Shown: positions 6,617 through 6,753 of the stretch, piece by piece | Layout of the letters: every line of letters starts with the position of its first letter | Position numbering within the stretch: the first letter of the stretch is position 1 | From: a virus | Strand: one strand, 5' to 3' | IMG/VR virus record: IMGVR_UViG_3300035034_001215 | Span: 1-21,799 of that record | Length of the DNA stretch: 21,799 nt | The notes under the pieces: generated by a model | What the model saw: only the letters and a program-made list of their open reading frames with translations | The model's database searches: none | What the model was told of the DNA's origin: nothing | Made by a program: the position numbers and the translations under genes

Positions 6617-6753
6617 GTCGCTATGGTGGAAGTGGCATACACACCGCACTAACCCGTCTCTATTGAGACTAGCTCTAGATTAATCATTTAGGTTTATGGG
6701 GTGAAAAGTGGGCCATTGATTCTGGTTTGTAGGTTCGAATCCTTCTAGGGACA
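6617..6753 (+). tRNA. Interrupted class II tRNA (Leu-type D arm)
   Basis: Acceptor GTCGCTA pairs 6/7 with TAGGGAC; the D arm is Leu-like; the T arm GTAGG/CCTTC (4/5) has loop TTCGAAT; a variable arm CCA-TTGATTC-TGG precedes it; discriminator A. The anticodon stem is CC(G)CAC/GTGGG with a bulged G, and the loop (6650-6707) has 58 bases, including a perfect GTCTC/GAGAC hairpin. Length is 137 nt against about 85 for a normal class II tRNA. The anticodon cannot be assigned without knowing the junction. Confidence 0.6.

What the first reader, a model, noticed from the sequence alone, without database searches (positions are those of the whole stretch)
6617..6753. Second interrupted class II tRNA, with a hairpin-containing 58-base insert
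A Leu-like D arm, a short variable hairpin, a T arm and 6/7 acceptor pairs frame a 58-base anticodon loop holding a perfect GTCTC/GAGAC hairpin. The location of the extra sequence matches the other interrupted tRNAs, suggesting a common cause.
Basis: partly seen in the sequence, partly recalled or inferred. Interest (0 to 1): 0.7.

Follow-up and report, generated by a model that had tools for sequence, protein, structure and literature searches.

The report
Phage leucine-tRNA gene carrying an intron
This stretch of a large bacterial-virus genome is a leucine-type tRNA gene whose anticodon loop is split by a conserved, folded 50-base insert that also occurs in three other phage lineages; relatives encode RNA-joining enzymes near their tRNA genes, so these phages may splice tRNAs with their own machinery.

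Summary
Window 6617-6753 is a class II tRNA gene (nearest intact relatives: tRNA-Leu) with a 58-nt anticodon loop. Standard ARAGORN and Rfam miss it; ARAGORN's intron mode finds it, with no intron calls in 200 shuffled windows. It is not two unrelated halves: four homologues (window, L167-type contigs, L341, L344) keep the arms by compensatory changes. The insert is a defined RNA: a short closing helix, two covarying hairpins, and conserved CURACCY...ACUAGC...GAUGGGGURAA (8 of 15 pairs with two-sided changes, hand-assigned). One uniform cut (CURA|CC...GGGGU|RAA) gives a perfect tRNA-Leu(AAG) in L341, and the same loop plus one extra base in the window. It is not group I, fits no Rfam family, and shows no BHB/EndA signature. 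Seven of 12 related contigs encode a T4-Rnl1-type ligase and a kinase-phosphodiesterase resembling fungal tRNA ligase's healing half; the window's twin contig has the collinear neighbours (Rnl2, RlaP, PARP). Best reading: an intron removed by phage-linked splicing. Splicing itself is inferred, not shown. A 'common cause' for all interrupted tRNAs is only partly right: at least two unrelated insert families exist. Phage tRNA introns were reported before (Lak megaphages, 'enigmatic').

The parts
6617..6652 (+). 5' exon of the tRNA (acceptor 6617-6623, D arm 6626-6642, 5' anticodon stem CCGC 6644-6647, loop up to CTAA)
   Evidence: end point is the cut common to four homologues (inference)
6653..6702 (+). 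about 50-nt structured insert (putative intron)
   Evidence: homologous inserts in L167, L341, L344
6656..6669 (+). hairpin A, GTCTC-TATT-GAGAC
   Evidence: present in all four homologues; GUUC/GAAC in L341 is a compensatory change
6675..6691 (+). hairpin B, CTAGA-TTAATCA-TTTAG, loop consensus YUUGYCA
   Evidence: three of four counted pairs with two-sided changes among four homologues
6652..6655 (+). closing helix, 5' strand ACCC (pairs with GGGT 6699-6702)
   Evidence: RNAalifold on A2; largely invariant, so little covariation support
6703..6753 (+). 3' exon (GAA, anticodon stem GTGG 6708-6711, variable arm 6713-6725, T arm 6729-6745, acceptor 6746-6752, discriminator A 6753)
6544..6614 (+). 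leader hairpin ending 2 nt before the tRNA 5' end; similar leader hairpins lie directly 5' of the L341 and L167 homologues
   Evidence: folds (z -1.5 to -2.4, weak one by one); architecture compared by eye
6046..6056 (+). promoter-like GTACCTTTGTA (TAnnTTTG type) upstream of the 6096/6360/6617 tRNA group
   Evidence: 5 copies in window against 0.06 expected; promoter role inferred

Best explanation
6617-6753 is an intron-containing tRNA gene of Leu type in a Bacteroidetes-type jumbo phage. The transcript folds as a tRNA whose anticodon stem is continued by a compact 50-nt domain (closing helix, hairpins A and B). The domain is cut out at the internal loop on the anticodon stem (about CURA|CC and GGGGU|RAA) by an endonuclease not yet identified. 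The exon ends are healed and joined, most likely by the phage-encoded kinase-phosphodiesterase and T4-Rnl1-type RNA ligase found near the tRNA array in relatives. Shown: the conserved, covarying structure, the Leu-type exons, a cut giving a canonical tRNA-Leu(AAG) in one homologue, and the enzyme genes in relatives. Inferred: transcription, cutting, joining and use as a tRNA.
For: Intron-mode ARAGORN call, none in 200 shuffles. Homologues with the insert: L167-type contigs (identical in three metagenome contigs), L341, L344. Covariance model: with the insert deleted, the best matches are mostly ordinary phage tRNA-Leu genes, E to about 1e-13. Compensatory changes in acceptor, D stem, anticodon stem and both insert hairpins. 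The uniform cut gives tRNA-Leu(AAG) in L341 with loop CTAAGAA, the same loop as 6 uninterrupted tRNA-Leu gene copies in the fetched sequences. Related phages have other tRNA introns whose removal restores perfect anticodon arms (L084, L148, L160, L195), one family with a covarying hairpin. Healing/sealing kit: Rnl1-type ligase 7/12 and kinase-CPD in the same 7/12 contigs, with conserved P-loop and two HxT motifs and a profile match to T4 Rnl1. The twin contig of the window carries Rnl2-type ligase, PARP and RlaP, collinear with those contigs.
Against: No RNA data. No cutting enzyme found: tRNA_int_endo 0/12 and RtcB 0/12, though contigs are incomplete. The window's own mature loop would have 8 nt (extra A) and a 6/7 acceptor; L167 would read CUGAAAA on a Leu-like body; L344 has a poor acceptor, so decoding identity is not conserved. 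Rnl1 and kinase-CPD are not on the window or its twin (the contig ends before them). RNA ligases in phages are otherwise explained by repair of nuclease-cut tRNAs (PMC7824862).
Confidence: 0.55

Rival explanations
1. The insert stays in: the RNA is a tRNA-like molecule with an enlarged anticodon arm that does not decode, for example a decoy or sink for host anticodon nucleases or a structural RNA.
For: Anticodon arms in these arrays are unusually varied: window 6360 has no pairing anticodon stem, 4140 a 17-nt loop, L239:5501 a 4-nt loop. G010 also has uninterrupted Leu, Ser and Tyr tRNAs. Anticodon identity is not conserved among the four homologues. Phage tRNAs that evade tRNA-targeting defences are known (PMC10264068, listed).
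Against: L341 becomes a canonical tRNA-Leu(AAG) at the same cut; other interrupted tRNAs become perfect tRNAs; the insert has its own conserved core, not just any enlarged loop.
Confidence: 0.24
2. The insert is a small ribozyme that cuts or splices itself out without protein.
For: Compact conserved core with a conserved loop (YUUGYCA) and conserved joining strands, more conserved than a mere spacer needs; phages use small ribozymes next to tRNAs (theta ribozymes, PMC10879173).
Against: No match to any Rfam ribozyme at E up to 10; 50 nt is far below any known self-splicing intron; ligases are encoded nearby in relatives.
Confidence: 0.1
3. A decaying tRNA-Leu gene that took an insertion and no longer works.
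For: Acceptor G.G and T-stem T.T mismatches, extra A in the loop in the window copy.
Against: Homologous insert and compensatory changes kept across lineages whose neighbouring protein is only about 63% identical.
Confidence: 0.08
4. Halves of two different tRNA genes, or a chance match.
For: None found beyond the failure of default tRNA finders.
Against: Acceptor, D and anticodon stems covary across the insert; no intron calls in shuffles.
Confidence: 0.02

Closest known systems
Introns in tRNA genes of Lak megaphages of Prevotella (Devoto et al. 2019, PMC6784885)
   Same: Large phages of Bacteroidetes-type hosts with many tRNAs, some interrupted by introns whose mechanism is unknown.
   Different: This case adds a defined insert structure with covariation, several lineages, a comparative splice site and a nearby healing/sealing gene set in relatives.
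Archaeal and eukaryal protein-spliced tRNA introns (EndA/TSEN, BHB)
   Same: Short introns in the anticodon arm, not self-splicing group I.
   Different: No tRNA_int_endo found in 12 related contigs; an internal loop of 4 by 4-5 nt instead of the bulge-helix-bulge; the insert has a conserved core.
Fungal/plant Trl1-type and amphioxus BfRNL + kinase/CPD tRNA sealing (PMC3400036)
   Same: Related phages pair a ligase of the T4 Rnl1 family with a separate kinase-CPD protein.
   Different: Tpt1 (PF01885) not found above cut-off in 12 contigs; role in splicing untested.
Group I introns in bacterial tRNA genes
   Same: Interrupt the anticodon loop of bacterial or phage tRNAs, including tRNA-Leu.
   Different: About 50 nt instead of about 200 or more (own knowledge); no group I match.
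YrlA (RF02553) and permuted tRNA genes (PMC3218864)
   Same: A neighbouring element at 7703-7835 has tRNA halves in reversed order (YrlA 43 bits, below its gathering score of 69).
   Different: Concerns the neighbour, not 6617; no TROVE/Ro60 protein in 12 related contigs.

Membership tests
tRNA-Leu (class II) | Leu-type D arm, long variable arm, A73 | tested here: met
   Best non-interrupted matches of model R1 are mostly tRNA-Leu genes; A73 and variable hairpin
tRNA-Leu (class II) | Leu anticodon in a 7-nt loop after intron removal | tested here: inconclusive
   Met in L341 (CTAAGAA), 8-nt loop in window, GAA in L167
Phage tRNA introns (Lak type) | Intron-like insert in the anticodon region of a large-phage tRNA gene, without Rfam class | tested here: met
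Phage tRNA introns (Lak type) | Sequence or structure shared with Lak introns | not tested
   Lak intron sequences were not at hand
Group I intron | Catalytic core P3-P7 | tested here: not met
   No Rfam match at E up to 10; about 50 nt
BHB/EndA tRNA intron | Bulge-helix-bulge at the splice sites | tested here: not met
   Consensus fold shows an internal loop, not two opposed 3-nt bulges (read by eye)
BHB/EndA tRNA intron | EndA-type endonuclease encoded | tested here: inconclusive
   0/12 related contigs, but contigs incomplete and host unknown
Trl1-like healing and sealing | Rnl1-type ligase, 5' kinase and cyclic phosphodiesterase encoded | tested here: met
Trl1-like healing and sealing | Acts on this pre-tRNA | not testable with these tools
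   needs biochemistry

The most novel reading that the evidence does not exclude
These phages run their own tRNA-splicing system, independent of group I ribozymes and of EndA/BHB: several families of small structured introns, in linear and possibly circularly permuted tRNA genes, are removed and the exons joined by phage kinase-phosphodiesterase and Rnl1-type ligase, with cutting by an unknown enzyme or by the insert RNA itself.
Probability: 0.4. Interest if true: 0.92.

Novelty: new variant of a known kind. Interest (0 to 1): 0.74.

Why it matters
Bacterial tRNA introns are taught as group I self-splicing introns only, and the tRNA introns of megaphages have stood as 'enigmatic' since 2019. 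A conserved intron RNA with covariation, a comparative splice site and candidate enzymes turns that into a testable question: do phages splice tRNAs with enzymes so far credited only with repairing nuclease damage? It also means default tRNA finders undercount phage tRNAs.

Tried and rejected
Whole-window megablast, regional blastn and protein searches of cultured phages gave no close relative. Whether 6617 belongs to the TTCAGCA intron family: it does not (no such motif in the insert). My first cut, 33/34, gave Ser(TGA) and Tyr(GTA) on a Leu body; dropped for the 35/36 cut once L341 was found. My first count of the TTCAGCA hairpin used a structure shifted by one column (no signal); corrected. 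A looser DNA pattern for this insert added only unrelated hits. Folding z-scores of insert and precursor are weak (-0.5 to -1.8), so the case rests on covariation. The AlphaFold model of the kinase-CPD protein is poor (pLDDT 69); Foldseek supports only the kinase half, weakly. The exact-pattern association of TTCAGCA introns with kinase-CPD contigs (3/23 against 0/22) is too thin to use. A stretch of GenBank phage LR756508 with a related Rnl1 showed neither intron family.

Full report
OBSERVATION. Default ARAGORN and Rfam gathering thresholds list the ordinary tRNAs of the window but not this one. Rfam finds nothing there even at E of 10. ARAGORN's intron mode calls exactly [6617,6754] and makes no intron call in 200 dinucleotide shuffles of the window. 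No ORF of 60 aa or more covers it.

HOMOLOGUES. The window is an IMG/VR fragment identical over its shared part to a 24-kb contig (offset). The neighbouring 208-aa gene led to related jumbo-phage contigs. One of these, present identically in three metagenome contigs (L167/L169/L175), has a homologous tRNA with a homologous insert, also placed in the tRNA array before the 208-aa gene. A covariance model from the two matches mostly ordinary phage tRNA-Leu genes when the insert is deleted. Run over 56 contigs, it found two more interrupted copies: L341:1501-1637 (84.9 bits) and L344:1501-1634 (56.1 bits). Most of those 56 contigs were chosen because they carry the kinase-CPD gene, so this sample is biased towards such phages.

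STRUCTURE. RNAalifold on the first two sequences, unguided, gives the tRNA arms plus a closing helix CCC/GGG, hairpin A and hairpin B, with five two-sided compensatory pairs. Across all four, with helices assigned by hand, 8 of 15 pairs in the anticodon stem, hairpin A and hairpin B show two-sided changes and nearly all cells pair. Conserved strands are CURACCY before hairpin A, ACUAGC between the hairpins (last base differs in L167), the hairpin B loop YUUGYCA (window: UUAAUCA), and GAUGGGGURAA at the end (UAUGGGGUGAA in the window, GAAGGGUGAA in L344). The acceptor (3:70 C-G to U-A) and D stem (U-A to A-U) covary too.

WHERE IT IS CUT. One cut fits all copies: CURA|CC...GGGGU|RAA. In L341 it gives a complete tRNA-Leu(AAG): 5/5 anticodon stem and loop CTAAGAA, as in 6 uninterrupted tRNA-Leu gene copies among the fetched sequences; ARAGORN calls it tRNA-Leu(aag). 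The window gives the same loop with one extra A; L167 gives CTGAAAA. So the window copy is less certain as a decoding tRNA than L341.

OTHER INTERRUPTED tRNAs. Related phages carry a different, commoner insert: A-rich strand, a 6-bp hairpin, then TTCAGCA two to four bases on. Its hairpin covaries (95.8% of cells paired, 8 cells with two-sided changes, none of 500 shuffles reaching this). It sits in Asp, Glu, Asn, Arg and other tRNAs at several places in the anticodon arm, five times in a row in L145. Removal restores perfect anticodon arms in several cases. The same motif flanks elements in which tRNA halves are in reversed order, with covarying acceptors (own pairs 6.6 of 7, swapped 3.8); the window has one at 7703-7835, which also resembles YrlA weakly. 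The 6617 insert is not of this family. Hence the 'common cause' is at most a shared processing system.

ENZYMES. In 12 related contigs RtcB, tRNA_int_endo, TROVE and Tpt1 give no match above cut-off. Seven have a T4-Rnl1-type ligase, the same seven a kinase-CPD protein (in each case one of the seven is below the curated cut-off), and seven an RNA_ligase (Rnl2-type) match. The kinase-CPD has a conserved P-loop and two HxT motifs, matches AAA_33 and fungal tRNA-ligase CPD above cut-off, and occurs in about 73 IMG/VR loci. Ligase and kinase-CPD on separate chains is the arrangement described for amphioxus (PMC3400036). In G010, which holds a 6617 homologue, and in G012 these genes lie upstream of the tRNA array. 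The window's twin contig carries DNA ligase, Rnl2, PARP and RlaP in the same order and ends just where Rnl1 and kinase-CPD would follow. Such sets in jumbo phages are usually read as repair of cut tRNAs (PMC7824862), which remains a fair reading.

PRIOR WORK. [quoted passage not shown] Lak megaphages were reported in 2019 to have tRNA introns, conserved and called enigmatic (PMC6784885). I found no paper giving a structure family or mechanism, within the open-access library searched.

VERDICT. A real, conserved, intron-like element in a Leu-type phage tRNA; splicing likely but unproven; a new variant of a known but unexplained kind.

Noticed in passing
window 7703-7835; L003:875-1000, L004:10689-10815, L084, L103, L163: tRNA halves in permuted order (3' half, linker, 5' half) with acceptors that covary across the permutation; flanks carry the TTCAGCA intron motif. 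Candidate permuted tRNA-Asn/Lys genes or YrlA-like RNAs.
   Followed up: partly
L145:270-939 (120-kb contig): Five consecutive tRNA genes each interrupted by the hairpin + TTCAGCA-type insert at different anticodon-arm positions.
   Followed up: partly
window 7844-7962; L003:1155, L006:10824, L084:4556: Interrupted tRNA whose insert contains a second T-arm-like hairpin; conserved in four phages.
   Followed up: partly
window 10800-11938: HNH endonuclease ORF (10922-11848) between a tRNA-Gly and a second tRNA 3' end; acceptor GCGGTAG pairs 7/7 with the distant CTACCGC but only 5/7 with the adjacent one, as if the element brought its own 3' half.
   Followed up: partly
window 12412-12563: Another class II-like interrupted tRNA: acceptor GGGGTTG/CAACCCC 7/7, stem CTACTG/CAGTAG around about 60 nt.
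   Followed up: no
window 6360-6433 and 4140-4224: tRNA bodies with abnormal anticodon arms: 6360 has no pairing anticodon stem (AGGGT/CTGGG), 4140 has a 17-nt loop.
   Followed up: no
window 6771-6842; L163 about 6143-6215; L341 about 920-990: Conserved RNA-like element (GCAGCAYTAGCCAWGTTGGAA..CCAGC..AGGTCAAAAAT..TGACTT) in the same neighbourhood in several phages.
   Followed up: no
L239:5501-5585: Leu-like class II tRNA with only a 4-nt anticodon loop (GCCTC GGAT GGGGC).
   Followed up: no
L198:6780-7379 (-): The Rnl1-type ligase of the 362-kb phage appears split by an intein directly after its KLDG catalytic motif.
   Followed up: no
L260:8385-10629: RlaP gene of the window's twin contig is interrupted by about 1 kb.
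   Followed up: no
window 12633-15468: Row of about nine paralogous short ORFs with repeats of the type NGQLxYKGNYVNGxRHGYWE (MORN-like).
   Followed up: no
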